From: Candidatus Hydrogenedentota bacterium
GTDB lineage: Bacteria > Hydrogenedentota > Hydrogenedentia > Hydrogenedentales > JAEUWI01
Reading direction: 5' to 3'
Assembly (NCBI GenBank): GCA_024280935.1
Contig: JAJRPE010000529.1
Coordinates: 1 to 36,453 of the forward strand
Length of the DNA: 36,453 nucleotides
Within the stretch, counting starts at the first letter, position 1; every line of letters starts with the position of its first letter. Positions 2 to 31,995 of the stretch are shown here, piece after piece. The notes beneath the pieces are model-generated. The model had not been told where the DNA came from. It worked only from the letters and a program-made list of their open reading frames with translations, and searched no databases. The position numbers were made by a program, and so were the translations under genes.

Positions 2-3000
2 CGCGATCTCCAGGGCAACGTGGGCAACGACCCAACACAGGACGAGCTTCACATCGATACGATTGCACCAACGGTTGCCGTAAACCCCTTGGTGAGCAAT
101 GACAGCCAGCCGCCGCTCACGGGTACCGTGGACGATCCAGGAGCGACCATCACTGTGGATGTGAATGGGGATGTGGGCCTTGCGGTCGTGAACAACGGCG
201 ATGGCACGTGGACCTTGCCGGACAATACCGTGAGCCTGTTGCCAGACAACGCTACAGGGTATGACGTCGTGGCAGCGGCGGTTGATTCCTTTGGGAATGT
301 CGGTGCTGACGGAACGACAAACGAACTTGTGATCGACACGGTCGCGCCGGTGCTTAGCGTGAACAGTTTGACGACGGCGGAAGTTTCGCCTCAATTGACG
401 GGCGTGGTGGACGATTTCCTGGCGACCATTCAGGTGACGGTAAATGGAGAAACGCTGGAGGCCACCAACAATGGCAACGGCACGTGGACCCTTCCTGGCG
501 GTCTCCTGTCGGCGCTGGACAGCGGTGTTTATGATGTAGTGGTGGTCGCCACGGATGGGGCGGGCAATATGGGGTTGGATGCCACAGTCGCGGATCTCGT
601 TGTGGATACGCTCGCACCGGTGATCACGGTGGATTCGCTTGTGACAACGGATACAACGCCGCCCCTTTCGGGCACGGTGGATGATACCGCTGCGGTGATT
701 TCGATTCGTCTTGCGGGCAGCGACTATATGGCCACCAACAATGGCGATGGCACATGGACTGTTTCTGACAATACCGTTGCCCTGTTGGCCGATGGGCAAT
801 ATGATGTGCAGGCTACCGCCACGGACACCTTGGGGAACGTGGGCGCGGACGGTACCGATAGCGAGCTGAATGTCGATACGAACGGCCCGGCGGTTTCCGT
901 GGATATCCTGATAACGAACGACACCACGCCCGCCTTGACGGGCACGGTGGCCGAAGCCGACGCAACCCTGGTCGTTACGGTGGCCGGAACCGATTACACC
1001 GCCACGAACAATGGCGATGGCACGTGGGGCCTGCCCGACGATCTTATCGACCCGCCGTTGGCGGAAGGCGACTATGACATCGCCGTTGTCGCTACGGATG
1101 GCCTTGGAAATATGGGTGCCGACACGGCGGCGGATGAGTTGCGCATTGACGTGACCTCACCCCTTGTCACCGTAACATCGCTGCTGACGAGCTTGGCATC
1201 ACCCGCGCTCGCGGGAACCGTGAATGATCCCACGGCCACGATTATCGTCGTGGTGGATGGCAATGCCTACACGGCCGCAAATATCGGGAACGGCACGTGG
1301 AGCTTGGTGGCGGGGCTGATTAGTCCGTTGGCTACGGGCGTGTTTGAGGTGGCGGTTCAGGCCACGGACCCGGCAGGAAATTCAGCCAATGATGGGACGA
1401 CGAACGAATTAACCGTTGACCTGGATGTGCCTGTTGTTACGGTGGACGTATTGACAACAAACGATAATACGCCGGAATTGACGGGTACAATCGATGATTC
1501 TGCGGCTATTGTCGTCATTTCCCTGGCAGGACAGACCAATACGGCGGTCAACAATGGCGATGGCACGTGGACACTTCCCGACAATGCGCTGACCACCCTG
1601 GCCGACGGCGTTTACAACGTTACCGCCGTGGCCACGGATTCGGCGGGCAACGCCAGCACGGATCCGAGTTTGGTGGATGACCTCTTCGTTATTACCATGG
1701 CACCGGCGGTTACGGTGAACCCCTTAACAACCAGCGATACCACGCCGCAGTTGAATGGCACCGTCAACCAGACGACCTCGACCGTCCGTGTTACGGTTGC
1801 GGGTCAGACCCATGATGCGGTGAACAATGGCGATGGCACGTGGACCTTGCCCAATGATACCTTGTCGGTCTTGGCCGAGGGCACCTATGACGTGGATGTG
1901 CGCGCCACGGATCTTCTTGGCAACGAGGGTGCGGATATCACCACCGACGAGCTGACGATAAGTTTGACCGCGCCGCTGGTGACGGTTGATGTGCTCACAA
2001 GCCGGGATCGGACTCCCGCGCTATCGGGCACTATCGATCAAGCGGGTGTCGTGGTGACTATTCTTGTAGACGGGCAGACCCGTTCGGCAACAAACAACGA
2101 CGATGGCACGTGGACCTTGGCCGATGACAGCCTCAATCCGCTGGCGGACGGCACCTACGATGTCGTGGCTACAGCCAATGGAGCCACGGATGCGACCGTC
2201 AACGAATTGACCATCGATTCCATCGGGCCATCTGTTCTTGTGGGTGGACCCAGCATTGCCGCGACCAAGTCAGGGCCAGTCAGTTTTAACGTGAACTATG
2301 ATGATGCCGCCTTGATCGGGCTGTTGGAAAGCGATATTGAAATATTTGCGCTGGTTGATGCGAATCCCACCGCCCTGAGCAAAAATCTGTTGCGTGCTGG
2401 TGCCAAGGCGTTTCCAATTTCCACCGCGACCGCCAATGGCGTTTTTAGCATCAGCGGTGACGGCAACGTGTTTCGCACCGTAACCATATCCGACATGACG
2501 GGCGATGGCTATCTCGGTATTGCGATAATTGCAGGCAGCGCCATTGACACGGTTGGCAACCCCGCATCGAGTGCGGTGGCGGGCCAACTGGTTTTTGTGG
2601 ACAACACGCCGCCCGCCGTGCTTGCGCTGGGCGTGGTTGACCAGGCGATCGTGGATGTGCGCTACAGCGAGGCCATGGGTGGGACGGCCCTTGAACCGGC
2701 GAATTACACCCTCTCTGGGCCGGGTCTTGGCACCTTGTCGGGTACGCCCGACGGTGTTGCCGAAGTGGAACCGAACCGCTTCCGCTTGACGTGGAATACG
2801 GGCACGCTGGTGAACGGCCAGGAAATTACCGTGACCGTCTCTAATGTCGCCGATGAAGTTGAGAATCTTATTGGCGCAGAGAACCAGGCAACAGCCCTGG
2901 TGGAGGGTATTGGTGTGCCGCCCACGGTTGCGGGCGTTGCGGTTCAGGGAATCCGGGCGCTAAGTGTGCAATTCAGTGAACCCATTGCTGTCGGTGCGCT

Positions 3001-6000
3001 CAACACGCTCAACTATGTCGTAAGTGGACCGGGACGGGGCACCTTGCTCGACAATCCGACGAGCGTTTCAGAATTGCCGCTTAACGATCCTGATGATCCC
3101 GATGTGATTTTGGAAGGAAACCGAAACAGCTATCTGCTCACTTGGACCGAGGGCGAGATGCTCCAGGGCGGTGACATAACGGTCACCGTGTCGGGCGTGG
3201 AAGATAACACCGGCAATAGCCTGGGTGCGCCAAACAGCGGTACGGACGCGGGCGCGGGCATTGGTGTTGCACCGGCCTTGTCCGCAGTTAACGTGTTGAC
3301 CGGCCTCACCGTTGAGGCGATTTTCAGCGAAACCATGGGCGCGGGCGCGGATGATCCTGCCAACTACGCCCTGAGTGGTGTCGGGCGCGGCACTTTGGCG
3401 ATCCAGCCAGACAGCGTTTCGGAAATCCTGCCGGGAATGTATCTACTCACCTGGAACGCCGGTGAAATGCTCAATGGCGGCGATATCACCCTTACGGTCA
3501 GCGGCGTATCCGATGCGGCGGGCAACGGAATTGGCGGCGCCAACACGGCCACGGATCCGAATGGAGGCCGTGACGGACTCATCACGGTGAACATACCTGT
3601 CCGCCGGGACACGACGCTCTATGAGGATAACGTGGGTGCGTTGGCCAATGGCGCGGGCACCACACTCTTCGCGGGTATAAATGACGCGGGCCTGCGTCGG
3701 CGAGGATTGCTTCATTTTGACGTGATCGGTAATATTCCCGAAGGTTCCCTGCTGACGGACGCTACTTTGATGCTCTTCAATGCAGGAAGCGTGGGCGATG
3801 CGGTATCCCGCTCGGTGGGTCTCCACCTGGTGGCCAGCGATTGGGCCGAAGGCTCCGTCGATGCGGGTGAACCCGGTGCGGATGGCGCGCCCGCCCAGGC
3901 GGGTGAAGCCACGTGGCTCCATCGCAGCTTCGACGGCACACTCTGGACCGTGCCCGGCGGCGATTTCGTAACACCGGCCCGGGCCACGGCTGCGGTTTCT
4001 GGACCAGCGTCCTATGAATGGAATTCGGCTGACGTGACCGTGGATGCGCAGGCGTGGCTGGACGATCCCGACAACAACTTTGGGTGGCTCTTGCTGGGTG
4101 ATGAAGTGGCTTCGGGCACCGTGAAAGCCTTCCGTACCAGGGAGCATGGCGTGCTTGCCGAGCAGCCCTTGTTGGAGGTGGTCTTTTCCCTTAATGGCGG
4201 CCCCGGCGGCCCTACCCTGGGCACGATTGGTGACCAGCAATTGGATGAAGGTGAAACCCTGACCCTCAATCTTTCGGCCAATGATACGGGCGGCAATCCG
4301 CTCGTGATCAGTGCCGCGCTGGCAAATCTGCCGCCCTCGAATGACGCGGCGCTGGCCGATAACGGCGACGGCACGGCCGTGTTCCAATGGACGCCCGCAT
4401 TTGTTGATTCGGGTTCCTATGTGGTCACGTTTATTGCGACGCAAGTCGGCGTTGCCAATCCGCTGAGTATTTCGGAGACCATTGTTATCGACGTGCGCGA
4501 GGTTAATCAGGCACCGGCCCTGGCAGACTTTGGCCTTCTCGTGGCCGTCGAAGGCCAGCCCTTTAGCTTCACTGCGGTGGCGCTGGACAACGATGGCGGT
4601 GATACGCACGCCTTCAGTTTGGTGCTTCCCGTTGATGGTGTAGCAATAGACAGCGCCAGCGGAACCTTGACTTGGATGCCGGGTTTCAGTGACGCGGGTG
4701 ACCGCATTATTGGCATCCGTGTCACGGATGACGGAAATCCGCCCCTGTCGGATGAACAGGATCTACAAATTTCGGTGGCGGATGCCAATGGGCCGCCCGC
4801 GCTTAACCCGGTAGGCAACCAGACGGTCGTGGAGGCCGAGGTCTTGTCCTTCCTGGTGACGGCGACCGACCCCGATATGGACGATGTGCTCAGCTACAGC
4901 CTGGAGAACAACCCGGCGGGAAGCACGATTGATCCAGTCACGGGCTTCTTCCAGTGGGTGCCCAATATTGCGTCTGCGGGCGATCATACCGCAACGGTGC
5001 TTGTCACAGATAACGGCGTTCCCATGTTGTCGGCCTCGGAAACCTTCCAGATTACCGTGATCGACGACAACCGTGACCCCACGGCGATTGCCCTGTCGCC
5101 CGCTAACGTGATGGAAAATATACCCGCAGGCGCGCTGGTGGGTGTGTTGACCACGACCGATCCCGATGCGGGCGATGCGCATACCTACATGCTCGTGGAC
5201 GGCGATGGCGACACGGACAACGGACTCTTTACCGTATCGGGCAACGAGATCCGAACGAACGCTACCTTTGATTTTGAGACGCAGTCGTCCTATAGCATTC
5301 GCCTGAATACCTTCGACGGGAAAGACGGCACCTTCGCCCAGCCGATGACTATCAGTATCGTGAACCAGAATGACCTGCCCACGGCTATTGCTCTCGACAA
5401 TGCAGATGTGGTCGAGAATGCGCCTCTGGGCACGGTGGTTGGAACGTTGACGACGGCGGACGAAGATGCGTCCGATGCCCACGCCTACTCGCTTGTTGCG
5501 GGCGATGGCGATGCGGACAACGGACTCTTCGCCATTAGCGGCGGTACCCTGATTGTTAACGGTGCCATCGATTTTGAGGCGCAGACGACCCATACGGTTC
5601 GGGTTCGCAGTGATGATCAGGCGGGTGGTTTTATTGAGGCGATATTCCTTTTGTCCGTCCTCAATCAGAACGATTTGCCCGATGGCCTGTCGTTGACGAA
5701 CACCCAGATAGCGGAAAATGGACCCACCGGCACGGAAGTGGGCCGCTTTATGACCAACGATGATGATGGAGGAAGCCAGGTCTACAACCTGGTGAGTGGC
5801 GAGGGAAGCGGAGACAACGGTGATTTCCAGGTCGTCGGCAACACGCTGATGACGGCTGCGCCGCTCGACTTCGAGGCAGGGCACCTGCGCAGCATTCGTG
5901 TGCGTTCCACCGATGACCAGCAGAGTTCCTTTGAGATGGTGTTCGAGATTGAGGTGCTGGATCGGAACGACGCGCCCACCGATCTGGCTATCAGCGCCAA

Positions 6001-8044
6001 TGGCATTCTGGGCAATGTGGCCGCAGACACGGTCGTAGGCGATCTGCTTAGCGAAGACCAGGATATTGCAGACGATCACACCTATGCGCTGGTTGCGGGC
6101 GACGGCGACGGTGACAATACGCGCTTCAAGGTGCTTGACCAACAACTGCTGACGGATGCACAGGTCAACTTTGACAGCAGCGCAACCTTCGAGATTCGTC
6201 TGCGGAGCACCGACACGGCGGGGGCATCTTTTGAAAAGGCCTTTGTTCTTGTGAACGATGACGTGGATGGCGATGGTATGTCGGATGCTTTCGAGCTGGC
6301 CCATTTTGGAAATCTCCTGGCGACACCGGAGGGGGATGGCGACGCAGATGGCCTGTCCAACCTGGACGAATTCTTGAATGGCACCAACCCCAACATCAGC
6401 GATACCGACGGCGATGGTGTCCTGGATGCTGTCGAGGTGGCGCTGGGCACGGATCCCACGAATAGCGCTGACGCGCCCGCTGTGCTGGACGTGTCGCCCG
6501 CTACGGCTTCCGTGGGCCGCGAGGAAGGTGTCATTACCCTGCGCGTTCGGAACACCGGACTCGCGGTGCTCAACTGGCAAGCCGAAGTGGCTTCCGGCGA
6601 TTTTGTGGAAATTTTGTCAGGCCAGACGGGTGTGAATTCTGGCGAGATCAACATTGTTCTGGCGACCAACTTGTCCAGCGCCGTGCGCCTTGCGACGGTG
6701 CGTGTCACTGCGGACAATGCCGTTGGAAGTCCTGCGGATATTGCTCTGAATCAATCCGCGTGTTCGGCGCCCGGCATACCCAGTGATGTGCTTGCGACCA
6801 ATGGAACCCTGCCGGGACAGGTGCGCGTGCTTTGGAATAACGTGGAAGACGCCGACGAGTACATGGTCTACCGCAGTTTGGGGACCGACCCGAACGGAGC
6901 CGATTTGATTGCCATGGTCGTGGGTACGGCCTTTACGGACGCTACAGCCGCAGTCTTGCCGACTGCGAAGCAGGCCGACGATACGGGCGGTGGCTGCGTT
7001 CCCCTTATTGCTCCGGGGCCTGGCACCGACGAAACCAGCTACCAGTATTGGGTGCGGGCATCAAATATTTGCGGGACGAGCAATTTCAGTGATCCCGACG
7101 ATGGTTTTCCGGGTGCCGGTCCCGCGCCCGCCCTGGCGTTATTTGAACCCGTATTGCCTGCGCTGGAAGCCGATAACCGGTCTCTGCGCGCACGCGTCGA
7201 TTCGGTGCTGGCTATTCGGCTGAAACGCGATTCCGCCATTGACCCGAATTCCATTCGTGGTGAAGTAACGCGTAGCAGCGGCGGCACGAGCACCACGATT
7301 GAATGGCGGGCCATTGACACCGAAGGACTCAGGGACGGCTGGGCACTTTACCGTCCTGGCGATGATTTGTTTAACTTGGGTGAGACGGTGGAGTTTACGG
7401 TTAGTGCCTCGACGGTTGTCGGCGAGACTATTGGCCCCTTGACCTACCGCTTCGCCATTGAGACCGAGCGTGATTTCCTTGACCGAATAGGTGCGGGCGA
7501 AGTACCCATAGGGCAGCCCGCCTATACGGACTTTGATGCCAGCGGTATTGATCTCAGCCTTGAAAGCCAGGAAGAAGTCCTGGTTTATGCCATTGACGAC
7601 ACCCGCGTGCCCGTTTCACTGGCCAACGCGACGGGTTTGGCCTATGCCATTGTGCCGGACGCGCTTTACGATGTGGGACAACGTGTATGGCTGCCCCTGG
7701 CGGATGATATGCGTGCCGATGATGTCGTGGTGAACTACTATTTCGCTGACAAAACAGGAAGCAGTACCGGGTGGCATGCTGCGGGCCAGATCGAAGGTTG
7801 GTCGGACGAATCAAGCTATCTGGAGTTGGAACTGGATGGCGCTCGCTATATCGGATTTACGGTACAGCATGGCGCTCTCGTTCAATTGAGCATGGCTGCG
7901 GCCAAGGACATCCCGGTGTCCGACGCGAGCGCGCTCCCGGCTTTTGTTCTTCGTTTTGGCGGCGACGGGATTATCGTCCTGTTGCTTATCTTTGGACTCA
8001 TTGCGATTTTGCCGAGATTCATTGGATTACGTGGCGCACGTTAG
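2..8044 (+). CDS. giant multidomain Ig/cadherin-like surface protein (5' partial)
   Basis: The reading frame is already open at the window edge and its first residues (GNVGND) match the end of an Ig-like repeat, so the true start lies upstream; about 2680 residues are visible. Module order by nucleotide: eight to nine tandem ~90-residue Ig-like repeats carrying NNGDGTWTLPDN-type motifs (about 30-2220); an Ig-like segment (2220-2610); three repeats containing NYxLSGxGxGTL and GGDITVTVSGV (2610-3570); a DNRLRE-like domain (3590-4190); three putative-Ig repeats (4215-5070); four cadherin-like repeats with VxENxPxGxxVG and NGLFxxxG motifs (5085-6260); thrombospondin-3/dockerin-like calcium loops DxDGDGxxD (6260-6480); a BACON-like segment (6480-6760); an Fn3-like domain (6770-7100); an unassigned C-terminal region; and a hydrophobic segment DGIIVLLLIFGLIAILPRF followed by Arg residues. 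The last part looks like a membrane anchor or sorting tail. Inferred role: adhesion or cell-surface structure. The next gene starts 24 nt downstream. Confidence 0.88.
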   Translation, partial: RDLQGNVGNDPTQDELHIDTIAPTVAVNPLVSNDSQPPLTGTVDDPGATITVDVNGDVGLAVVNNGDGTWTLPDNTVSLLPDNATGYDVVAAAVDSFGNVGADGTTNELVIDTVAPVLSVNSLTTAEVSPQLTGVVDDFLATIQVTVNGETLEATNNGNGTWTLPGGLLSALDSGVYDVVVVATDGAGNMGLDATVADLVVDTLAPVITVDSLVTTDTTPPLSGTVDDTAAVISIRLAGSDYMATNNGDGTWTVSDNTVALLADGQYDVQATATDTLGNVGADGTDSELNVDTNGPAVSVDILITNDTTPALTGTVAEADATLVVTVAGTDYTATNNGDGTWGLPDDLIDPPLAEGDYDIAVVATDGLGNMGADTAADELRIDVTSPLVTVTSLLTSLASPALAGTVNDPTATIIVVVDGNAYTAANIGNGTWSLVAGLISPLATGVFEVAVQATDPAGNSANDGTTNELTVDLDVPVVTVDVLTTNDNTPELTGTIDDSAAIVVISLAGQTNTAVNNGDGTWTLPDNALTTLADGVYNVTAVATDSAGNASTDPSLVDDLFVITMAPAVTVNPLTTSDTTPQLNGTVNQTTSTVRVTVAGQTHDAVNNGDGTWTLPNDTLSVLAEGTYDVDVRATDLLGNEGADITTDELTISLTAPLVTVDVLTSRDRTPALSGTIDQAGVVVTILVDGQTRSATNNDDGTWTLADDSLNPLADGTYDVVATANGATDATVNELTIDSIGPSVLVGGPSIAATKSGPVSFNVNYDDAALIGLLESDIEIFALVDANPTALSKNLLRAGAKAFPISTATANGVFSISGDGNVFRTVTISDMTGDGYLGIAIIAGSAIDTVGNPASSAVAGQLVFVDNTPPAVLALGVVDQAIVDVRYSEAMGGTALEPANYTLSGPGLGTLSGTPDGVAEVEPNRFRLTWNTGTLVNGQEITVTVSNVADEVENLIGAENQATALVEGIGVPPTVAGVAVQGIRALSVQFSEPIAVGALNTLNYVVSGPGRGTLLDNPTSVSELPLNDPDDPDVILEGNRNSYLLTWTEGEMLQGGDITVTVSGVEDNTGNSLGAPNSGTDAGAGIGVAPALSAVNVLTGLTVEAIFSETMGAGADDPANYALSGVGRGTLAIQPDSVSEILPGMYLLTWNAGEMLNGGDITLTVSGVSDAAGNGIGGANTATDPNGGRDGLITVNIPVRRDTTLYEDNVGALANGAGTTLFAGINDAGLRRRGLLHFDVIGNIPEGSLLTDATLMLFNAGSVGDAVSRSVGLHLVASDWAEGSVDAGEPGADGAPAQAGEATWLHRSFDGTLWTVPGGDFVTPARATAAVSGPASYEWNSADVTVDAQAWLDDPDNNFGWLLLGDEVASGTVKAFRTREHGVLAEQPLLEVVFSLNGGPGGPTLGTIGDQQLDEGETLTLNLSANDTGGNPLVISAALANLPPSNDAALADNGDGTAVFQWTPAFVDSGSYVVTFIATQVGVANPLSISETIVIDVREVNQAPALADFGLLVAVEGQPFSFTAVALDNDGGDTHAFSLVLPVDGVAIDSASGTLTWMPGFSDAGDRIIGIRVTDDGNPPLSDEQDLQISVADANGPPALNPVGNQTVVEAEVLSFLVTATDPDMDDVLSYSLENNPAGSTIDPVTGFFQWVPNIASAGDHTATVLVTDNGVPMLSASETFQITVIDDNRDPTAIALSPANVMENIPAGALVGVLTTTDPDAGDAHTYMLVDGDGDTDNGLFTVSGNEIRTNATFDFETQSSYSIRLNTFDGKDGTFAQPMTISIVNQNDLPTAIALDNADVVENAPLGTVVGTLTTADEDASDAHAYSLVAGDGDADNGLFAISGGTLIVNGAIDFEAQTTHTVRVRSDDQAGGFIEAIFLLSVLNQNDLPDGLSLTNTQIAENGPTGTEVGRFMTNDDDGGSQVYNLVSGEGSGDNGDFQVVGNTLMTAAPLDFEAGHLRSIRVRSTDDQQSSFEMVFEIEVLDRNDAPTDLAISANGILGNVAADTVVGDLLSEDQDIADDHTYALVAGDGDGDNTRFKVLDQQLLTDAQVNFDSSATFEIRLRSTDTAGASFEKAFVLVNDDVDGDGMSDAFELAHFGNLLATPEGDGDADGLSNLDEFLNGTNPNISDTDGDGVLDAVEVALGTDPTNSADAPAVLDVSPATASVGREEGVITLRVRNTGLAVLNWQAEVASGDFVEILSGQTGVNSGEINIVLATNLSSAVRLATVRVTADNAVGSPADIALNQSACSAPGIPSDVLATNGTLPGQVRVLWNNVEDADEYMVYRSLGTDPNGADLIAMVVGTAFTDATAAVLPTAKQADDTGGGCVPLIAPGPGTDETSYQYWVRASNICGTSNFSDPDDGFPGAGPAPALALFEPVLPALEADNRSLRARVDSVLAIRLKRDSAIDPNSIRGEVTRSSGGTSTTIEWRAIDTEGLRDGWALYRPGDDLFNLGETVEFTVSASTVVGETIGPLTYRFAIETERDFLDRIGAGEVPIGQPAYTDFDASGIDLSLESQEEVLVYAIDDTRVPVSLANATGLAYAIVPDALYDVGQRVWLPLADDMRADDVVVNYYFADKTGSSTGWHAAGQIEGWSDESSYLELELDGARYIGFTVQHGALVQLSMAAAKDIPVSDASALPAFVLRFGGDGIIVLLLIFGLIAILPRFIGLRGAR

Positions 8045-11218: not shown

Positions 11219-13939
11219 GTGATCCAAGTTGACGTGCCCCGCAGTACCCGAACGCACGTGCTGTTGTTTCTTCTCGTGCTGTCCTTTTTCTTCGTGTCCG
11301 GGGCATGCGGGCTGTTGTATCAGGTCGTTTGGACCCGAAAACTTGTGTTGCTTCTGGGGACGACTTCCCATGCGGTTTCCACGGTACTGTCCATATTTTT
11401 CCTGGGACTGGGCGTGGGAAGCATCTGGGGCGGGCGTTTGGCGGATCGGACGACACGCCCGCTCAGGGCCTACGGCATTTTCGAGTGTATCATTGGCCTG
11501 TGGGCGCTTGGCTTTATCGTGGCGGTGACCTACGGCGAAGACGCGGTTGTGGTCTTGCTCAAGCAGTTTCATCTGTCCCGTGGCACGGGAACCCTGTTCC
11601 GGGGCCTTTTGGCGCTGCTGCTGCTTTTTGTGCCCGTCTCGCTGATGGGGGCGACGCTGCCCCTTCTTGCCCGCTTCGTCTCGCGGGAGGCGAAGGTCCG
11701 GGGTATGCGAATCGGTGCCTTGTATACCCTGAATACGCTCGGTGCCGTGGCCGGGTGCTTTGTCGCGGGCTTTTTCCTCATACCACGCTTTGGCTACACG
11801 CAGACAACGCTGCTGGGCGCTGCCGCCAATGTGGCTGTGGGTCTTGTGGCGTGGGGGCTATCCCGACATCGAGAGACTGGGGCCGTTGTCGAGCGTGGCG
11901 CGGAAGTGCCGCCGCCATCGGAAGTAGACGCCCAGGCCACCATGCGTGGCCTGGTTATCGCGGCCTTCTTTCTGTCTGGCTTCTGCTCCCTTGGGCTGGA
12001 GGTGCTGTGGACCCGCCTCCTGGCAATCATCTTCCTGGGGACGACCTATGCATACACCACCATGCTCACCACCCTGCTGCTGGGGATTGCGCTGGGCAGC
12101 GCGGTGGCCTCCGCGTTCGTGGATCGACTGGGCCGCCCCGCCCTTTGGCTCGGTGCTGTGTTGGCCCTGACGGGTGTTGGCTGTGTCTATATGCTGGGTA
12201 CCCTGGCCGCAATGCCCGAAGCGGTTATGGCGCTCCAGCTGGACAGCGGCGGAGATTGGGGCGCCGTGATTCGGGGCAAGGTGTGGCTGTCCTTCAAGGC
12301 GCTTTTTCTACCCACCTTTTTCCTGGGTATGACCTTTCCTCTCGTGGTCAAGGCCGTAAGCAATACGCGGGCGACCTTGGGCCGCGATGTGGGGCGCTTG
12401 TATTTCGCCAATACGGTGGGCGGTGTTCTCGGATCACTCGTGGGCGGGTTTCTGTTTATTCCGCTCATTGGCACCCACTGGGGTATCGTGGTCTTTGCCC
12501 TTTTAGTGACGCTGGCGGGCGCGGCGCTGATAGTGGCGAGTCCGCAGACCTCCTTTTTATTCAAGGGACTTTCCTGCGCGACGGTGGCGTTGCTTCTGGC
12601 GGGAAGTTTCTGGCGGGCACCCGTCGATGTGAATCAATCGTTGAATGCGGGCTACATACCCGAGAGTCATCGCGTGATCCACTACAAGGAAGGCGTGGAA
12701 GGCACCGTCGCGGTATCTGAACCCAGAGATGAGCGCGACGGGACGGACCGGGTGCTCTGGATTAACCGGGTACAGGCGACTACGTCCATCGAGAAGGGCG
12801 TGAAAATGAACCGTCTTCAAGGCGTGCTTCCCTTGCTTTTCGACCGGCAGCCCACGGATGTGCTCTTTATGTGTTTCGGATCGGGCATTACGTGCGGCAC
12901 CCTGGCCCTGTCTGATTTTGCGCGCATTGACGCGGTGGACATCAGCCCGGAAGTGCTGGAGGCCGCGCCCTTTTTTGAGGTCGATAACCTGGGTGTTATC
13001 GATCGCCCCGAGGTCACGTTTCACGTGGACGACGGCCGAAACTTCCTCCTGACATCGGAGCGCCGCTACGACGTAATTACCTTTGAGCCCATGCCCCTCG
13101 CCATGTCGGGCGTATCGACCTTCTACACCCAGGAGTACTACAAACTTTGTTTGGAACACCTGAAGCCCGGCGGCATGGTATCACAGTGGATCCCGCTCCA
13201 CGGCTTGACACCGGAGATTGTAAAGTCCCTGGCCTATACCTTTACCACGGTGTTCCCCAACTACACGGCGTGGTTTATTAATGCGGACCTCTTCCTGATC
13301 GGGTCCAACGCCCCGCTCAAGCTGGACGTGGTGGCCTTGCAGGCCCGTCTTGCCACGCCCGCGCTGGAGAAGGCCCTCAAGGATGTGGGCTTTGCCGATA
13401 TCCCTTCCATACTGGGGTGCTACCTGATGGATGAGGCGGGGCTGGATGCTTATACAGCCGGGGGCACGGTCATGCGCGATGACCTTCCCTGGGCGGAGTT
13501 TGAAGCGCCCAAGCTGATCAATGTCCGTACGCAACACAAATCCATGGCGCTCCTTGAACAGCATATGAGCAGCCCCGTCTCACTTTTTCTTCCGGGCGCA
13601 ACACCGGGATTTCTCACCGATGTTGAGCGGCGTCACCGCGCCCGCACCCACGACATGAAAGGGCTGCAGGCCTATTACGGGGGTATGAATATTGGCAACA
13701 AGGCAATTGATTTGTTTGTGGAGTCGTTGGAGATCGATCCCGAGGATAAAAACGCCCAATACTACCTTCGACAGATCGCACGGATGCAGGGGGAAGTTTT
13801 TATTCGGTGGGGCGACTTTGACAAGGTTCAGGCGCTACTGGACAAGCTCCTGCCCTACATGCCCGATGCCCCGGAGCTGCTGGAGGTGCAAGCGGCCCTC
13901 AAGGCGGCCCTGGCGGAAGAGGGCGCGAAGCCCGAATAG
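11219..13939 (+). CDS. fused MFS-like membrane / spermidine-synthase-like protein
   Basis: 906 residues. The first ~480 form about a dozen hydrophobic segments (for example LLFLLVLSFFFVSGACGLLYQ), the integral-membrane half typical of fused MFS/spermidine synthase proteins. Residues ~500-740 form a Rossmann methyltransferase-like domain related to spermidine synthase, with a glycine-rich nucleotide loop (FMCFGSGITCGTLAL), the acidic strand end AVDISPEVLE, and YDVITFEP followed by the FYTQEYYKLCLEHLKPGG segment. Where true aminopropyltransferases have the catalytic Asp in YDxIIxD, this protein has Glu-Pro, so polyamine synthesis is doubtful. A TPR-like tail follows (about residues 820-900). 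The start GTG 11219 has AGGAG (11206-11210) at 8 nt. It converges on the Fic gene. Confidence 0.88.
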   Translation: MIQVDVPRSTRTHVLLFLLVLSFFFVSGACGLLYQVVWTRKLVLLLGTTSHAVSTVLSIFFLGLGVGSIWGGRLADRTTRPLRAYGIFECIIGLWALGFIVAVTYGEDAVVVLLKQFHLSRGTGTLFRGLLALLLLFVPVSLMGATLPLLARFVSREAKVRGMRIGALYTLNTLGAVAGCFVAGFFLIPRFGYTQTTLLGAAANVAVGLVAWGLSRHRETGAVVERGAEVPPPSEVDAQATMRGLVIAAFFLSGFCSLGLEVLWTRLLAIIFLGTTYAYTTMLTTLLLGIALGSAVASAFVDRLGRPALWLGAVLALTGVGCVYMLGTLAAMPEAVMALQLDSGGDWGAVIRGKVWLSFKALFLPTFFLGMTFPLVVKAVSNTRATLGRDVGRLYFANTVGGVLGSLVGGFLFIPLIGTHWGIVVFALLVTLAGAALIVASPQTSFLFKGLSCATVALLLAGSFWRAPVDVNQSLNAGYIPESHRVIHYKEGVEGTVAVSEPRDERDGTDRVLWINRVQATTSIEKGVKMNRLQGVLPLLFDRQPTDVLFMCFGSGITCGTLALSDFARIDAVDISPEVLEAAPFFEVDNLGVIDRPEVTFHVDDGRNFLLTSERRYDVITFEPMPLAMSGVSTFYTQEYYKLCLEHLKPGGMVSQWIPLHGLTPEIVKSLAYTFTTVFPNYTAWFINADLFLIGSNAPLKLDVVALQARLATPALEKALKDVGFADIPSILGCYLMDEAGLDAYTAGGTVMRDDLPWAEFEAPKLINVRTQHKSMALLEQHMSSPVSLFLPGATPGFLTDVERRHRARTHDMKGLQAYYGGMNIGNKAIDLFVESLEIDPEDKNAQYYLRQIARMQGEVFIRWGDFDKVQALLDKLLPYMPDAPELLEVQAALKAALAEEGAKPE

Positions 13940-13977: not shown

Positions 13978-15336
13978 TCATGCGTCAGCGGCAAGTTCTT
14001 CCAAGGCATTTTCCAGGTTTTCCACCGGAGTAAAGTGGTAGGTCTTTCCTGATTTTGTTTTGCGCATGAGGCCTCTCTTCTCCAGATCAGAGAGATCCGT
14101 TCGTGCGGTTTGATGGACGACACCATGGTGTGTCTGGTGTGATTTTACGGTATATCGATGGAATGGATGCCGGATAGCGTGACCTAAGAGAGCGGTTTGC
14201 CGGTGATTTAGCGAAACTTGCCCCCGAAGTCTTTGTTCGACTGCTTTTTGTTGTTTGTTTTTTCGGGCGATGTACTCTTGCAGAGCGTTCATTGCCCGAT
14301 TAATGACGGTCAGTTGGTGCAGGATGAAATAGGTCAGATCGTTTTCATCCGTTTCCGTATAGAGAAAGGCCTTTGCGTATTTTCCGGGAGATTTCTTTAA
14401 GATAGGGGAAATCGTTATGAACTCGAAGAGCCAGTATCCATGGTGCAACATGGTCCAGTAAAACAAGGCCCGCGCAGTGCGGCCATTTCCATCGACGAAG
14501 GGGTGATCGTAGGCCAGTATAAAATGGACAATAATGGCCCGGAGAACCGGATGAACGAATCCTTGCGTGCCTGTGCCATTTGCAAAATCACAAAGTACCT
14601 GTAACCGCTGATCCAGCGTATCTGGAGCGGGGGGCTGGTGTTGAATCTCCCCGGTTAATCGATCCTGTACGCAGATCCTGCCATCCATATCGTTTCGGAA
14701 GCGGCCTGCGGCACTTGAATCGTCTAAGGTGCCTTGCGTGATCAAACGGTGAATCTCGAATACACGTTCTTTGGTCAACGGTGCTTCCTTGAATTCGCCA
14801 ATTTTTTTCATCGTTACGAAATTATTCAAGATCATTTGCTCATCTCGATTGCGCGGCGCTCGTTCCGTGCTGAGCATGTCTCGGGCCACTTGCTTTGTGG
14901 TTGATGCGCCTTCGAGTTGACTAGAGGTGATCGCCTCTTCCATAAGCGAACTTACATAATAGCGGTCTCGATTTTCCGAGTTTAGTATTTCTGGTGTCGA
15001 TTCGACGGTACCACCACCCCACAGATCGATATCGTGTAGGTTTTCTGGAACGGGGTCAACAAGTGAATACTGAAAGGGCTTGCCTGCCTTGTCGCGAAAG
15101 GCCATGTTCTTCGTTGATGAGCCGCGATAGAACTTCAGGCCCAGCCACCACTCTTCATGGGTAAGCCCTTCGGGTGGCCGCATGTGCCGGATTGTTTCCC
15201 AGTGCCGGTACTTTCCATTGTCTGTGGGCCCAGAAACTTTTTCTAGGATTTCCATGAGGCCATTGGGTTTGCCAATACTTGTCATCAACGCATAAGCGTA
15301 AGCGCCTTTTTTGGAATGGCCATTCTGTAAGCCCAA
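13978..15336 (-). CDS. Fic-domain AMPylase with inhibitory motif and C-terminal winged helix
   Basis: Up to 452 residues. The Fic motif HPFVDGNGRTAR is complete, including the catalytic His and the phosphate-binding GNGR; Fic enzymes transfer AMP from ATP to a target side chain. Upstream, SSQLEGAST matches the (S/T)xxxE(G/N) self-inhibitory helix, placing it in the class with the inhibitor in the N-terminal part of the same chain. The C-terminal ~80 residues (TALLGHAIRHPFHRYTV... DLSDLEKRGLMRKTKSGKT) look like a winged helix-turn-helix, common in this subfamily. The longest frame starts at TTG 15336 without a ribosome-binding site; ATG 15283-15285 (MTSIGKPNG) is an alternative, also without one. 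The DNA is AT-richer than its flanks, suggesting transfer. An operator-like palindrome lies upstream. Confidence 0.9.
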   Translation of the reverse strand: MGLQNGHSKKGAYAYALMTSIGKPNGLMEILEKVSGPTDNGKYRHWETIRHMRPPEGLTHEEWWLGLKFYRGSSTKNMAFRDKAGKPFQYSLVDPVPENLHDIDLWGGGTVESTPEILNSENRDRYYVSSLMEEAITSSQLEGASTTKQVARDMLSTERAPRNRDEQMILNNFVTMKKIGEFKEAPLTKERVFEIHRLITQGTLDDSSAAGRFRNDMDGRICVQDRLTGEIQHQPPAPDTLDQRLQVLCDFANGTGTQGFVHPVLRAIIVHFILAYDHPFVDGNGRTARALFYWTMLHHGYWLFEFITISPILKKSPGKYAKAFLYTETDENDLTYFILHQLTVINRAMNALQEYIARKNKQQKAVEQRLRGQVSLNHRQTALLGHAIRHPFHRYTVKSHQTHHGVVHQTARTDLSDLEKRGLMRKTKSGKTYHFTPVENLENALEELAADA

Positions 15337-25923: not shown

Positions 25924-27675
25924 ATGAAAACAATTGCGCGGGATTTTTCGGCGGGCGTATGCTTGGTGCTTCTGCTTTTCGCCTCTGGGTTCGCCGTAGC
26001 CGATCCCAGCCTTCCGTGGGCATTGCGTAACCACTACAGCATCCCCATCGAGGAAGGCGTGCTGATTTACGGGGAGGATAATGCCGAGTGGCGCGTACTA
26101 TTGAAGGATGAGACGGTGCTGGCGGACAGCATCGGTTTCTCCATCACCCTGGGTGACGGAACCGAACTCACGGGCCTCAGCCTGGAGGAAGGAACGTCGA
26201 GCCGAGACGCGTTCACCAACGCAATCGGTGACGGCACCACCTATTCGGTCACCTTTCCGCCCCAGAAAGGCCTGAAAGTAACCCACATCCTTCGGACCTT
26301 TAAGGCGCGCCCCTTCGTATTCGTCGAAATAGAGGTGGAGAATGTTGGCACGACCGACGTTGCGGTGGCCAGCATTCGCCCGGTTGTCTCCGAAAGCTCC
26401 GTGATACAGTCCCTCAGCCCCCAGACGCGGATTCACTATCGGCGGCTGCAGGATGTGGCCGGCCAACCCATCGTTGTGGCCGAGGAAGATGCGCTGATGG
26501 CCGTGATTCACGACCCGGCAAAGCCCATCTGCTTTGGCGTGGGCCTGATCCCCACCGGCCAGGCCCGTTCGACGGTGTCCTTTCGTGAACGGGATGGCGA
26601 ATGGCATGGGGAAATCGCGTGTCGCTATGAACCCGCCCGAAGAATCGCTCCCGGCGAAACGCTGAGCGCCGATCCGTTGTGGATATCCCATGGTATGCCC
26701 GAGGCCCATCGGGTGGATTTGTATTACTCGTGGGCGTACAGCGTGCTCGTGGATTCGCCGGAAAGAAATTTTCCCGCCCGGGGCTGGTATACCTTGGACG
26801 ATGCCAAGGGTCTCAACGACTACGTTGCTGCCGGTACGGCCTGGAATAAGGTGGGTATCAACCACGTTCTGGTCGGACCAGGCTGGGAAGGGCGCCCTGG
26901 TTCACTTCAGGGTGCTGCCTCGCGCTTTCCCAAGAGCATGAAGGGGGCTGTCGGAACGCTGACCCAGGCAGGCATGAAAGTAGGCATTAGCATCGACCCC
27001 CTGGTCGCCAAAGAAGGCGGCCAGCCCTGGACCGTCGATTCCAGCGACGGACAAGCCTGGATCAACCCCACGTTGCCGGGTGCCGCCAAAGCCCTCGCCG
27101 CGAAAATGAAAACGCTGAATTCCTGGGGGGTTGCCTTCGTCGTGGTTGATAAATCCATGATTCCCGACGCGGCATTGGAAAAATTCCAACTCACCCGGTC
27201 GGAAGCGCAGAATGCAGCCTACAAGGCCCTTCGTAATGCGGCGGCCCCGATTCCGGTCTTTCCGGCATCCGTTGGAATGATCCAGGACAACGTGGACGAC
27301 TGGCTCGATGTGGGCAGCGCCGTGGCGCGTATGGCTATCTATGGCATGGTGCCGGGGCCATTGCACTTTCGGGTAAAAGATGCTGCGAATATTTCGGATG
27401 ACCTCGTAACAGCGGCCAGTTTCTGGCCGGGTCCCATCGAGTTTCAGGGCAGGTTAAAACACAAGTCGCGGGACGGCATCGCGACGTTGGTTGCCAGGGA
27501 GCGGGTTCCGGCCCAACCCATGGATGCGGACCGGCGCGCGCCTCGCACGTGGGAGGTGAAGGAGTATGATTCAGAGGGGACGCTGCTTGACGAACGGACC
27601 ATTTCGTTGAGTGGAGCGCGTGCCGCCCTTGCCGAGAAGTCGGCGGGATCGAAGGAGAATGGTGCGGCCTCGTAA
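25924..27675 (+). CDS. exported protein, possible TIM-barrel glycoside-hydrolase relative
   Basis: 583 residues. The signal peptide MKTIARDFSAGVCLVLLLFA with cleavage near AVA-D predicts export. Residues ~30-270 look like a beta-rich domain (EGVLIYGEDNAEWRVLL... FVFVEIEVENVGTTDVAV), comparable to the N-terminal supersandwich of GH36-type alpha-galactosidases. The part from ARGWYTLDDAKGLNDYV through GINHVLVGPGWEG, MKVGISIDPLVAKEG and WGVAFVVVDKSMIPD reads like successive beta strands of a TIM barrel, ending near AIYGMVPGPLHFRV. The expected acidic nucleophile context (KxDF/KWD) is not clear; VVVDKSM may be its degenerate equivalent. ATG 25924 has GGAG (25911-25914) at 9 nt. The substrate is unknown, and a non-catalytic or new subfamily is possible. 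Confidence 0.65.
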   Translation: MKTIARDFSAGVCLVLLLFASGFAVADPSLPWALRNHYSIPIEEGVLIYGEDNAEWRVLLKDETVLADSIGFSITLGDGTELTGLSLEEGTSSRDAFTNAIGDGTTYSVTFPPQKGLKVTHILRTFKARPFVFVEIEVENVGTTDVAVASIRPVVSESSVIQSLSPQTRIHYRRLQDVAGQPIVVAEEDALMAVIHDPAKPICFGVGLIPTGQARSTVSFRERDGEWHGEIACRYEPARRIAPGETLSADPLWISHGMPEAHRVDLYYSWAYSVLVDSPERNFPARGWYTLDDAKGLNDYVAAGTAWNKVGINHVLVGPGWEGRPGSLQGAASRFPKSMKGAVGTLTQAGMKVGISIDPLVAKEGGQPWTVDSSDGQAWINPTLPGAAKALAAKMKTLNSWGVAFVVVDKSMIPDAALEKFQLTRSEAQNAAYKALRNAAAPIPVFPASVGMIQDNVDDWLDVGSAVARMAIYGMVPGPLHFRVKDAANISDDLVTAASFWPGPIEFQGRLKHKSRDGIATLVARERVPAQPMDADRRAPRTWEVKEYDSEGTLLDERTISLSGARAALAEKSAGSKENGAAS

Positions 27676-27776
27676 CAAGAAGGCAACGAGCGCCTTGCGT
27701 AATCTTAATGAATACGGGTTAAACGAGAAAAAGAAATAAATTGGCAAGCCGATCCTGATTGAGAGGACTTGAGTGC

Positions 27777-28706
27777 ATGATGCCATTTCAGATAAACCCG
27801 GCCGAAACCCAAAACAAGGCAAGCCTGCTAAAATACTTCCGCGAGCGCGGAGGGGAAAAGCTTTCTGAACTCAGGGCGGAAGTCGGAAGCCAGAACCACA
27901 AGAAATTGGCATCGGGGCTGAACAAGGCCATTGTTGCCAGTCTTAATGCGTTCCGGGGGGCAATAATCTCGAATTCAAAGCGAGAAGAATGGTCTGACGA
28001 CGACACGCTGCGCTCCATTCTTTCTTCAACATATTGTGCTCAAGCAGCAATGCTTGAGCTCAGAAATGAAGTCTGGCCATACGAATATATGGCCTTTTCA
28101 CGCCGCATTGGAGAACTATGGGAAGATTTTGTTCACATTCCTTTTGCTCATCCGCTGACGGCGGTGTGCCCATTTGTCCCGCCGTTATTCTCAGAAGTTC
28201 GCGCTGATTTACGAGAAGAGGTTGAAGAGTATATCGCTGACCTTAGCTTGGCGGCTGAACAAATAAAAGAGTTGCTGGAGTATTACGAGAAAGTTTGGCG
28301 GTTGGTCGATTCCGGTGGGGTTAGTCTGCAACTTGATCTTCATGCGGAAATTCACGGCAAGAAGGTTAACATTGACTTCAAGAGCGGATTTGGATCGAAT
28401 GAAAAGGGAAACACGAATCGCCTTCTGATGGTTGCGACAATCTATCACAATCTGGAAGACAATTATGAGAACATACTTCTTGTTCGGGCGCGTGAAGATC
28501 TCAATAATCACTATTTTCAGACCCTGAAGAATTCCGACGTGTGGGAGGCTTATTGCGGAATGGACGCCTATCGAAAGATTAGTGATTTTACTGGATTTGA
28601 CCTCGCAACCTGGATCGCGGGAAACATTGATTGGTCATCTGACTTACTTCCTGAAACGTTGGAACATTTCGAGGCAAACGACCTGCTGCGGTATTTGGAA
28701 TGGTAG
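27777..28706 (+). CDS. putative type II restriction endonuclease (PD-(D/E)XK fold)
   Basis: 309 residues. A PD-(D/E)XK-like active site can be read: a conserved-looking Glu in RRIGELWEDF (E113), then QLDLHAEIHGKKVNIDFKSG, giving D187 and D200-x-K202 with 12 residues between the two Asp. Such spacing fits restriction enzymes, and the RIGELWED helix is typical of their first acidic residue. Ahead is an all-alpha region. No known subfamily was recognised, so the recognition sequence cannot be stated. ATG 27777 is preceded by GAGAGGA (27761-27767) at 9 nt; an in-frame TTG at 27759 is too near it. The stop overlaps the methyltransferase start by 7 nt, so the two genes are translationally coupled. 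Base composition is distinctly AT-richer than both flanks. Confidence 0.72.
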   Translation: MMPFQINPAETQNKASLLKYFRERGGEKLSELRAEVGSQNHKKLASGLNKAIVASLNAFRGAIISNSKREEWSDDDTLRSILSSTYCAQAAMLELRNEVWPYEYMAFSRRIGELWEDFVHIPFAHPLTAVCPFVPPLFSEVRADLREEVEEYIADLSLAAEQIKELLEYYEKVWRLVDSGGVSLQLDLHAEIHGKKVNIDFKSGFGSNEKGNTNRLLMVATIYHNLEDNYENILLVRAREDLNNHYFQTLKNSDVWEAYCGMDAYRKISDFTGFDLATWIAGNIDWSSDLLPETLEHFEANDLLRYLEW

Positions 28707-30259
28707 CGCACAAGCGGCATAGAGATCCGTATCGAACTTTTTTTACTGCGGATGAGGTTCTTGGTGACTACATGGCCTCGCTCCTGGATGCGAAAGATAG
28801 TGATACGCTACTGGAACCTTCGGCGGGCGATGGCCATCTGATTGATGCCGTCAAAAGGATTGTCCCGAACATTCCTGTAACAGCGTATGAACTACACCCA
28901 AAGCATGCTGATAATTTGCGTAAGAAGTTTCCAAATGGCAGCGGCGTAGATATTTTTGAGAGAGACACCATACTTTGCCCGGATTTGGATCTACGAGAAA
29001 ATTTTGGGTATAAGTTTGCCAAGATTATTGCCAATCCACCCTACGGCGGATGGCAAGATCATGAAAGACGCGCATGTCTCAAAAAGCGGTTTTCGGGTTT
29101 CTATGTTCGCGAGACGTACACGCTGTTTTTGTTGAGATGCCTCCGCCTGTTAGAAGATCAGGGGAAACTTGTTTTCATTATTCCCGACACCTTCCTTTAT
29201 TTGCATCTCCATTCTCCGCTTCGCAGATTGATTGTGGAGGAATACACGTTCGAGAGTATCGACGTTTTCAAATCCTCTCTCTTTCCGGGTGTGTCATTTG
29301 GCTACGCGAAGTTATGCATTATTGCGATCTCCGCGCGCAATGCGTCTCCAGAGCATTCATTTCGGATTCGATTTCTTGATGCCCTGAGTGAATTTGAGTG
29401 CGCGGCGCAGACGGAAGAAAACTCCAAGCTGGTCTTTCAGAAAGACATTCTGAAAGCGCATAGCTATACAATTCCCGTGTCTCCCAATCAAGAGGCCCTT
29501 CATGAATCCAGTTTGCAGGGAACAACGATGGGGGACATTGCCGAATGTGTTACCGGATTTTATTCGGGAAGGGACAAGGAGTTTCTCCGCAGGGCCTCGG
29601 ACCAGGTAAAGCGTTCAAATGGCTATGAAATTGTTGATCAGGAGTTGGTTGAGCCTCACCCTTCTTCGGTTACAAACGTGCTCGAAGGCATTGAATCGAA
29701 ACGTTCATTTATCCCTGTTTTGAAAGGAGGAGGCTACAATTTCATTAAACCCAATTTATGGTTCGTCGACTGGAGTCGTGAATCTGTTGCACACTATAGA
29801 ACAGATAAGAAGGCGAGGTTTCAGAATCCATCCTTCTATTTTCGAGAGGGGGTTGGCTTCCCGATGGTCACATCAACTAGGCCAACGGCAGCGCTCATTC
29901 AAGATGCCCTCTTTGACCAGTCGATAGTCGGGATATTTCCAAAGACTGAGGTTAGCGTGGAATTCCTGCTTGCCTACTGTAACTCGAAACCATTTTGGGT
30001 GTCCTTGAAAGCGATAAACCCCTCTGCGAACAACTCAGCAAGGTATGTGTTAAGGACCCCAGTGTTTCTGCCAGATGCTGAGGTGCAAGCAAAAATTACG
30101 CAAAGAACGAAGGAACTGATTTACGTGCTCCAGAACGGGGATTCCGCATCAGAGGTTTTAATGAAAGAAATACTCCATTCGATTACTGTATATGTTAAGA
30201 AAATGGCGGACGAGAAGGCCTTGGAGCCAACGGCGTTGCGCGCGGCGGCCCAACTCTGA
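28700..30259 (+). CDS. N6-adenine DNA methyltransferase (gamma class)
   Basis: 519 residues. Motif I, LLEPSAGDGHL (residues 37-47), binds S-adenosylmethionine. Motif IV, NPPYGGW (112-118), is the catalytic N6-adenine motif. The order I then IV places it in the gamma class, as in M.TaqI. Additional class features are FTADEVLGDYM near the N-terminus and the target-recognition region beyond ~residue 270 (TMGDIAECVTGFYSGRDKEF... KPFWVSLKAINPSANNSARY). It protects the host from the nuclease encoded immediately upstream, whose stop codon it overlaps. The protein ends ADEKALEPTALRAAAQL, a tail whose DNA forms an attC-like inverted repeat. It could also be an orphan regulatory methylase, but the overlap argues for a restriction-modification pair. 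Confidence 0.9.
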   Translation: MVAHKRHRDPYRTFFTADEVLGDYMASLLDAKDSDTLLEPSAGDGHLIDAVKRIVPNIPVTAYELHPKHADNLRKKFPNGSGVDIFERDTILCPDLDLRENFGYKFAKIIANPPYGGWQDHERRACLKKRFSGFYVRETYTLFLLRCLRLLEDQGKLVFIIPDTFLYLHLHSPLRRLIVEEYTFESIDVFKSSLFPGVSFGYAKLCIIAISARNASPEHSFRIRFLDALSEFECAAQTEENSKLVFQKDILKAHSYTIPVSPNQEALHESSLQGTTMGDIAECVTGFYSGRDKEFLRRASDQVKRSNGYEIVDQELVEPHPSSVTNVLEGIESKRSFIPVLKGGGYNFIKPNLWFVDWSRESVAHYRTDKKARFQNPSFYFREGVGFPMVTSTRPTAALIQDALFDQSIVGIFPKTEVSVEFLLAYCNSKPFWVSLKAINPSANNSARYVLRTPVFLPDAEVQAKITQRTKELIYVLQNGDSASEVLMKEILHSITVYVKKMADEKALEPTALRAAAQL

Positions 30260-30273
30260 CGCTGGCGTTGGGG
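30225..30273. repeat. attC-like imperfect inverted repeat at the end of the R-M module
   Basis: Four short blocks occur in attC order: AGCCAAC (30225-30231), GTTGCGC (30235-30241), GCCCAAC (30248-30254) and GTTGGGG (30267-30273). The outer pair (CCAAC/GTTGG) and inner pair (GTTGCGC/GCCCAAC, one mismatch) can base-pair as an attC-type folded site. It is shorter than usual, the two spacers are unequal (3 and 12 nt), and the last base is not the expected pyrimidine. No integrase gene is present. Confidence 0.3.
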
Positions 30274-30321
30274 GCATGCCAGAGACTAAAATATTGACTT
30301 AGATTGCGAAAAAGGATTCAG

Positions 30322-31995
30322 GTGTACTATTCCAGACTTGGAAAACAGACCGTAAACGCGGTTCGGCTGGCCGAAGTGCTTCAGGTCTTCGTGAAGCACG
30401 GCTTCGCCGATCTGCTTCAGCGTGCCGGTTTCCATCGAAGTCTTCCCGCCAAGCTGCTGCGCAGTCTGAATCTTATGGAGGCACCCGCCGGGCCACCCCA
30501 CACCTTTGGACAACGCATGCGCGCTGCCTTGGTGGACCTCGGCCCCACCTTTGTGAAGCTGGGCCAGATCCTCAGCACGCGGCCCGACCTGATTCGCATT
30601 GAAACCGCCCGGGAACTGAGCAACTTGCAGGACCGGGTGGACACCCAGCCTTTCGAGATTATGGAGGCTGTCTTGCGGGATGCCCTGGGCGCTTCGGCGG
30701 AAGAACTGTTCGCTGCCTTCGACACCACGCCTGTCGCATCGGCCTCCCTGAGCCAGGTATACCGGGCCACCCTTCCTGAGGGCCAAGAGGTGGCGGTCAA
30801 GATTCAGCGGCCGGGTGTAAAAAAGGTTATTGAGTCGGATCTGAGTCTCATGCGGCAGGTGGCGGAATGGATTGCGGTTCATCTTGAGGATGCCAAATGG
30901 CTGGACCCGCCGGGGATTGTGGATGAGTTCGCCCGGTCCATTCGCCGCGAACTGGATCTCAATATTGAGGCCCGCGTTATCGAGCAATTTCGGGAAAACT
31001 TTGAAGATGATCCCGCCGTCGATATGCCCCATGTGTATCCAGAATTCTCGGGCAAATCCGTGCTCACTATGGACTGGGTCGATGGCGTGCGCGTGGATCA
31101 GGTGGCGGATTTTCCCGAACGTAACTCGGATCCGGCGCAGGTAGCCATCAATGGCTGCGATGCCTTGTGCCGCATGGTCTTTGATTACCACCTGTTTCAT
31201 GCTGATCCCCACCCTGGCAATATCTTCGTAACTCGGGACAACCACTTGGCTTTCCTGGATTTGGGTATGGCCGGGCATCTAGAGCAAAGCGATGTGGCCG
31301 CCATCGGCGACCTCCTTCTCGCCTTGTTTGATCGGGACAGCCGGGCCTGTGTGGACGCTATCCTCGTGTTGACGACGGGCGGGGAGCCTTCCGACGAGGA
31401 GGTGTTGGAGCGGGAGCTTACCGAGTTTATCGCTTTTGAAGCACGGGCGATTCTGAGCGGCGGTCAGGTGGCCCGGGGGCTGGAGCGCACGACCCAGATT
31501 TTGCAGCGGGCCAACATGAAGCTGGCTCCGCGCTTCGCCTTGCTCATCAAGGCCCTGGCAACCATAGAAATGGTGGGGCGCGGCCTTGACCCTTCCCTGG
31601 ATATGGTGCCCATCATGCAGCCCTATGTGGAGCGCCTGATCAAGCGCCGCTACGAACCCCGGTACCTATTTCGCGCATTTCAGCACAATTCTCGGGTCTT
31701 GCTGCGACTTGGGCATCAGGTTCCGCGCGATCTCGCCACGCTCCTGCAGCAGTTGCGGCTTGGGAAACTCAAGTTTTCCATTCACCACGAGCATTTGGAA
31801 GACCTTGCGGCCACCATTGACCGTGCGAGCGGTCGAAACACGGTGGGCATGATCGTTGCCGCGTTGATTGTGGGTTCCAGCTTGTTGATAACCACCGAGA
31901 CGACTATCAGCCGACTGGGCATAGCGGGCTATGTTTTTGCCGGACTCCTGGGCAGTGTCCTGGTGATTTCCATTTTGTGGAAGCGAAAATTTTAG
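30322..31995 (+). CDS. UbiB/ABC1 (AarF) atypical protein kinase family
   Basis: 557 residues from GTG 30322. The family includes UbiB, needed for ubiquinone synthesis and handling. It shows the KxGQ motif FVKLGQILSTRPDLI, the Ala-rich nucleotide loop VASASLSQVYRA with the Lys of VAVKIQRPGV, the catalytic HADPHPGNIFV, and the DLG of AFLDLGMAG (metal site). Two C-terminal membrane helices follow (MIVAALIVGSSLLI and YVFAGLLGSVLVISIL). The longest frame starts at TTG 30304 with no ribosome-binding site, whereas GTG 30322 has AAAGGA (30311-30316) at 5 nt, so the shorter protein is preferred. It starts 62 nt after the R-M module and is probably a resident gene. No quinone-pathway gene is adjacent. 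Confidence 0.93.
   Translation: MYYSRLGKQTVNAVRLAEVLQVFVKHGFADLLQRAGFHRSLPAKLLRSLNLMEAPAGPPHTFGQRMRAALVDLGPTFVKLGQILSTRPDLIRIETARELSNLQDRVDTQPFEIMEAVLRDALGASAEELFAAFDTTPVASASLSQVYRATLPEGQEVAVKIQRPGVKKVIESDLSLMRQVAEWIAVHLEDAKWLDPPGIVDEFARSIRRELDLNIEARVIEQFRENFEDDPAVDMPHVYPEFSGKSVLTMDWVDGVRVDQVADFPERNSDPAQVAINGCDALCRMVFDYHLFHADPHPGNIFVTRDNHLAFLDLGMAGHLEQSDVAAIGDLLLALFDRDSRACVDAILVLTTGGEPSDEEVLERELTEFIAFEARAILSGGQVARGLERTTQILQRANMKLAPRFALLIKALATIEMVGRGLDPSLDMVPIMQPYVERLIKRRYEPRYLFRAFQHNSRVLLRLGHQVPRDLATLLQQLRLGKLKFSIHHEHLEDLAATIDRASGRNTVGMIVAALIVGSSLLITTETTISRLGIAGYVFAGLLGSVLVISILWKRKF

What the first reader, a model, noticed from the sequence alone, without database searches (positions are those of the whole stretch)
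27777..30273. AT-richer restriction-modification module with an unassigned PD-(D/E)XK nuclease
The nuclease has E113, D187 and D200-x-K202 in suitable order, overlaps a gamma-class methyltransferase, and no known restriction subfamily is recognisable. Base composition drops visibly relative to both flanks, indicating recent transfer into an otherwise resident region.
Basis: partly seen in the sequence, partly recalled or inferred. Interest (0 to 1): 0.6.

Follow-up and report, generated by a model that had tools for sequence, protein, structure and literature searches.

The report
Transferred type II restriction-modification gene pair
Two overlapping genes, a DNA-cutting restriction enzyme and the methyltransferase expected to protect the host's own DNA from it, were inserted from outside into an otherwise conserved stretch of this bacterial chromosome; this is a real but ordinary anti-virus gene pair whose target sequence is not yet known.

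Summary
Window 27777-28706 (+) encodes a 309-aa nuclease and 28700-30259 (+) a 519-aa gamma-order N6-adenine methyltransferase; they overlap by 7 nt. E113, D187, D200 and K202 are conserved across homologs, and the AlphaFold model (pLDDT 90) has the PD-(D/E)XK order of elements. Closest folds, though weak, are mostly PD-(D/E)XK enzymes (EcoO109I, Kpn2I, Ecl18kI, Card1). GC is 47% against 57% (no equal-sized stretch in 124 kb of the same genome is that low), both genes are codon-usage outliers, and all three congeners have the flanking genes without the pair. Only this genome of 68 in its phylum has either gene.

"No known restriction subfamily" is wrong: PADLOC's REase_II model PDLC03405 matches the whole protein (446 bits). 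Pfam, NCBIfam and PDB sequences have no relative. Every intact nuclease homolog examined with its flank on the contig sits beside a cognate methyltransferase, and the gene trees agree: a standard type II R-M system, probably with a palindromic site (inferred). "Recent" is unproven: the nearest intact nuclease is 57% identical.

Side result: two phage lineages carry the methyltransferase intact beside a broken nuclease gene, fitting anti-restriction capture. New member of a known kind; recognition site unknown.

The parts
27777..28706 (+). Type II restriction endonuclease gene (R), 309 aa, PD-(D/E)XK type: E113 (helix 104-124), D187, D200-x-K202 and the family signature DFKSGFGSNEKGN (200-212)
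   Evidence: (PADLOC REase_II, 446 bits, full length)
28700..30259 (+). Cognate N6-adenine DNA methyltransferase gene (M), 519 aa, gamma motif order, Eco57I family; overlaps R by 7 nt
27762..27778 (+). Ribosome-binding site and start region of R (AGAGGA then ATG at 27777); 14 of 17 bases match the leader in front of the ubiB-like gene at the empty site of congener G037, so a possible duplicated insertion-point leader
   Evidence: single match in the window; expected by chance 0.05
27676..30310 (.). Extent of the inserted DNA: three congeners go straight from the upstream gene (25924-27675) to the ubiB-like gene (30304-31995)

Best explanation
A horizontally acquired type II restriction-modification system. 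R would be a homodimeric (inferred) metal-dependent PD-(D/E)XK endonuclease that binds a short, probably palindromic site and cuts both strands, with D187 and D200 holding the metal, K202 in the active site and E113 on the neighbouring helix. M methylates an adenine in the same site on host DNA and blocks cutting; incoming unmethylated phage or plasmid DNA is cut. Shown: gene pair, conserved catalytic residues, predicted fold order, R-M linkage and congruent R and M trees, insertion at a site that is empty in congeners. Inferred: cleavage, shared specificity, palindromic site, defence function.
For: PADLOC REase_II PDLC03405 over residues 2-309, 446 bits. M is an Eco57I-type methyltransferase. 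R and M are adjacent in every intact homolog checked, in Desulfobacterota, Deinococcota, Bacteroidota and Enterobacteriaceae plasmids; in the plasmids a C (controller) protein precedes R, a hallmark of type II systems. Residues conserved down to 32-35% identity. Model pLDDT 90.4 with helix - strand - strand(D187) - strand(D200, K202) - helix - strand. A second model, of a homolog 35% identical, gives EcoO109I (E 0.005, prob 0.93), Kpn2I, Cdn1, Ecl18kI, BspD6I, Card1, BstEII and Bse634I among its top 15. R and M trees agree on the main groups. Empty site in three congeners; 1 of 68 phylum genomes has R or M.
Against: No Foldseek match reaches E 0.001 and TM-scores are about 0.3, so fold assignment rests on topology plus residues plus weak matches. 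No recognition site known; no methylome or cleavage data. No sigma-70-like promoter found in the module (weak test).
Confidence: 0.93

Rival explanations
1. The methyltransferase is in effect solitary and the nuclease is inactive: only a regulatory or protective methylation function remains.
For: In Bacillus phages BSP10/BSTP3 and in IMG/VR contigs L023/L024 the R gene is broken while M is intact, so M can persist alone.
Against: In this window R is full length, without stops, with all catalytic and signature residues conserved; intact R is kept across several phyla.
Confidence: 0.04
2. Part of a larger or different methylation-linked defence system (BREX/PglX-like, MADS or type IIG) rather than a two-gene type II system.
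For: M has weak matches to PglX/BrxX, type IIG and MAD2 models, all sharing Eco57I-type methyltransferase domains.
Against: Those matches are 11-96 bits, far under the curated cut-offs of 500-900; no BREX, DISARM or MADS partner lies next to the pair; homolog loci contain only R and M (plus C protein in plasmids).
Confidence: 0.02

Closest known systems
PADLOC REase_II PDLC03405 (type II restriction enzyme family model; PADLOC cites REBASE)
   Same: Full-length match over 2-309, 446 bits; it also matches the homologs tested here
   Different: The model gives no enzyme name, recognition site or tested function
EcoO109I and related PD-(D/E)XK enzymes (Kpn2I, Ecl18kI, Bse634I, SgrAI)
   Same: Best solved-structure neighbours of the models; a PD-(D/E)XK core and similar size
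   Different: About 10% identity, E 0.005 or worse, TM about 0.3; no sequence-level relation. Not a basis for membership or for guessing the site
R and C protein with convergent M on IncFIB plasmids of Klebsiella pneumoniae and E. coli (e.g. NZ_CP028544)
   Same: Same R family (32% identity, PDLC03405 at 3e-45) and same M family (33%)
   Different: R and M convergent, with a controller protein gene upstream of R; R annotated only as hypothetical protein
Eco57I-family gamma-class adenine methyltransferases (M.TaqI, CamA, BrxX folds)
   Same: Pfam PF07669, NPPY motif IV, C-terminal recognition region
   Different: Not fused to a nuclease and not part of a BREX locus

Membership tests
Type II restriction-modification system | Separate nuclease and methyltransferase genes, linked | tested here: met
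   R 27777-28706 and M 28700-30259; linkage kept in homologs
Type II restriction-modification system | Nuclease belongs to a recognised type II restriction enzyme family | tested here: met
   PADLOC REase_II PDLC03405, 1.5e-134; none in Pfam or NCBIfam
Type II restriction-modification system | Both enzymes act on the same short sequence; methylation blocks cutting | not testable with these tools
   needs methylome and cleavage assay
PD-(D/E)XK nuclease superfamily | Conserved D and (D/E)xK residues | tested here: met
   D187, D200-F-K202 invariant; E113 conserved in all rows covering it
PD-(D/E)XK nuclease superfamily | Alpha-beta-beta-beta-alpha-beta core | tested here: met
   H104-124, E130-132, E188-192, E195-202, H207-226, E230-236 in a pLDDT 90 predicted model; same order in a second homolog
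PD-(D/E)XK nuclease superfamily | Significant fold match to a solved member | tested here: inconclusive
   Top matches are mostly members, but best E is 0.005 and none reaches 0.001
Gamma-class N6-adenine DNA methyltransferase (Eco57I type) | Motif I before NPPY motif IV, recognition domain at C-terminus | tested here: met
BREX (PglX/BrxX) | Above-cut-off PglX methyltransferase with BREX partner genes | tested here: not met
   96 bits against a cut-off of 500; the gene on the left has no Pfam match above cut-off (best a sub-threshold melibiase hit) and the gene on the right is an ABC1/ubiB-like kinase

The most novel reading that the evidence does not exclude
The nuclease family defined by D-x12-DFKSGFGSNEKGN is a structurally distinct branch of PD-(D/E)XK restriction enzymes with an uncharacterised recognition site, and phages have at least twice captured the pair, lost the nuclease and kept the methyltransferase as protection against it.
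Probability: 0.35. Interest if true: 0.35.

Novelty: new member of a known kind. Interest (0 to 1): 0.2.

Why it matters
It adds an intact, clearly transferred member to a restriction enzyme family that lacks a Pfam model and a solved structure, so expressing R and M would give a new restriction site or a new isoschizomer. The phage copies with a broken nuclease gene and an intact methyltransferase gene offer a simple test of whether phages take R-M methyltransferases as shields. Otherwise it is an ordinary defence gene pair.

Tried and rejected
Kpn2I as the identity of the plasmid homolog: rejected, because in Kpn2I M and C are divergent and C starts with TTG (PMC6237814), whereas here M is convergent with R and C starts with ATG. 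Integron cassette idea for the odd M C-terminus (EKALEPTALRAAAQL, inverted repeat at 30247-30275): the sequence occurs once in the genome, no integron integrase passes the cut-off and the RNA fold is no better than shuffles (z 0.04). Larger defence system (BREX, MADS): matches far under cut-offs. Weak Pfam hit of R to Lip_C (E 0.046) and PDB hits at E about 1: chance. Foldseek against viral models: nothing at E 0.001.

Full report
What is there. R (27777-28706, +, 309 aa) starts at ATG 27777 behind AGAGGA; the longer TTG start listed mechanically at 27759 is unlikely, because homologs begin at about the same place as ATG 27777. M (28700-30259, +, 519 aa) begins inside the last codons of R (ATGGTAG overlap, 7 nt). 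M has Pfam Eco57I and N6_Mtase domains, with EPSAGDG (39-45) before NPPYG (112-116), and sequence matches to CamA, M.TaqI and BrxX structures (the CamA name for 7lni/8cxz is from my own knowledge).

But PADLOC's type II restriction enzyme model PDLC03405 matches residues 2-309 with 446 bits, E 1.5e-134, so the family is already recognised as a type II restriction enzyme. Homologs at 46-58% identity occur in Desulfatirhabdium, Deinococcales and Bacteroidota, and at 32-37% on Enterobacteriaceae plasmids and one IMG/VR contig. D187, D200 and K202 are invariant and E113 is present in every row that reaches it; the strongest conservation is the signature DFKSGFGSNEKGN around D200-K202.

Fold. An AlphaFold model from 11 sequences has mean pLDDT 90.4 and pTM 0.86 and shows helix 104-124 (E113), strand 130-132, strands 188-192 and 195-202 (D187 at the start of the first, D200 and K202 at the end of the second), helix 207-226 and strand 230-236: the PD-(D/E)XK order, with extra helices at the N-terminus and between the first two strands. 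A second model, of the homolog on L025 (about 35% identical), gives the same order. Fold, residues and genomic context together make the clan assignment very likely; the fold search alone does not prove it.

Linkage. R and M lie next to each other in all intact homologs whose flank is on the contig: tandem R then M in L001-L006, L018 and L019; convergent in the plasmids (L010, L011) and in L025. On the plasmids a 70-aa protein matching PADLOC control-protein models (3e-28) precedes and overlaps R by 4 nt. R and M trees agree on the main groups: plasmid and L025 apart; window with Desulfatirhabdium and Deinococcales; the four close Bacteroidota copies together. The pair has therefore travelled as a unit across phyla. 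The window copy has no separate controller gene; the space upstream of R is only 101 bp.

Transfer. The module's GC is 0.472, against a mean of 0.570 (sd 0.021, minimum 0.529) for 949 equally long windows from other contigs of this genome. Codon-usage scores of both genes lie below all 63 reference genes. The three congeners in the collection carry both flanking genes, 25924-27675 (56-66% identical in protein) and the ubiB-like 30304-31995 (79-87%), directly next to each other, with nothing like R or M between. Of 68 genomes of the phylum only this one has R or M. A 17-bp stretch at R's start (27762-27778) matches the leader of the ubiB-like gene at the empty site of G037 at 14 of 17 bases, which may mark the insertion point; this is weak. 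No integrase or insertion sequence was seen beside it. 'Recent' is not demonstrated.

Phage copies. In Bacillus phages BSP10 and BSTP3 (identical over 2,268 bp in this region, so one lineage) only residues about 165-309 of R remain, in two frames, while M is a complete 506-aa gene. In IMG/VR contigs L023 and L024, M (521 aa, 55% identical to the window's, its closest relative in the tree) is intact but R lacks about 130 N-terminal residues and is interrupted around D187 in L023; L023 also has a D12-class adenine and a C5-cytosine methyltransferase upstream. Independent loss of R with retention of M is what selection for protection from this restriction specificity would give; that is inference.

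Mechanism and limits. The most likely working is that of a classical type II system: M marks an adenine in the host's sites, R cuts unmarked DNA. A single methyltransferase suggests a palindromic site; this is inference from general knowledge of type II systems. The recognition site cannot be obtained with these tools.

Noticed in passing
L009 3001-3433 and 3437-4957 (Bacillus phage BSP10); L050 (BSTP3): Phage copy of the pair: nuclease gene reduced to a frame-broken C-terminal remnant, methyltransferase intact, next to a gene annotated terminase small subunit in BSTP3.
   Followed up: partly
L023 2596-7268; L024 65-2058 (IMG/VR): Second phage lineage with broken R and intact M (closest relative of the window's M); L023 also carries D12-class and C5-cytosine methyltransferase genes upstream.
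   Followed up: partly
L010 4783-7349 and L011 (Klebsiella and E. coli IncFIB plasmids of about 100-218 kb): Unannotated type II R-M system: controller protein, R annotated as hypothetical protein, convergent M.
   Followed up: partly
window 13978-15336 (-): Fic protein (PADLOC SoFic, 140 bits) in the window's other AT-richer patch and third-worst in codon usage; a 70%-identical homolog is on another contig of congener G037 and none in the other two congeners.
   Followed up: partly
window 30205-30256: M ends with an extension (EKALEPTALRAAAQL) absent from homologs, with a short inverted repeat at its end; origin unknown.
   Followed up: partly
window 20-8044 (+): 2,674-aa surface-type protein with seven Big_13 stretches plus cadherin, TSP3 and Ig-like domains.
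   Followed up: no
window 11219-13939 (+): Fusion of a major facilitator transporter and a spermine-synthase-like domain in one 906-aa frame.
   Followed up: no
L020 (G436): Nuclease homolog with an in-frame stop in a genome of the Roseivirga (L003) phylum that also has a second partial copy at a contig end beside M (L022).
   Followed up: no
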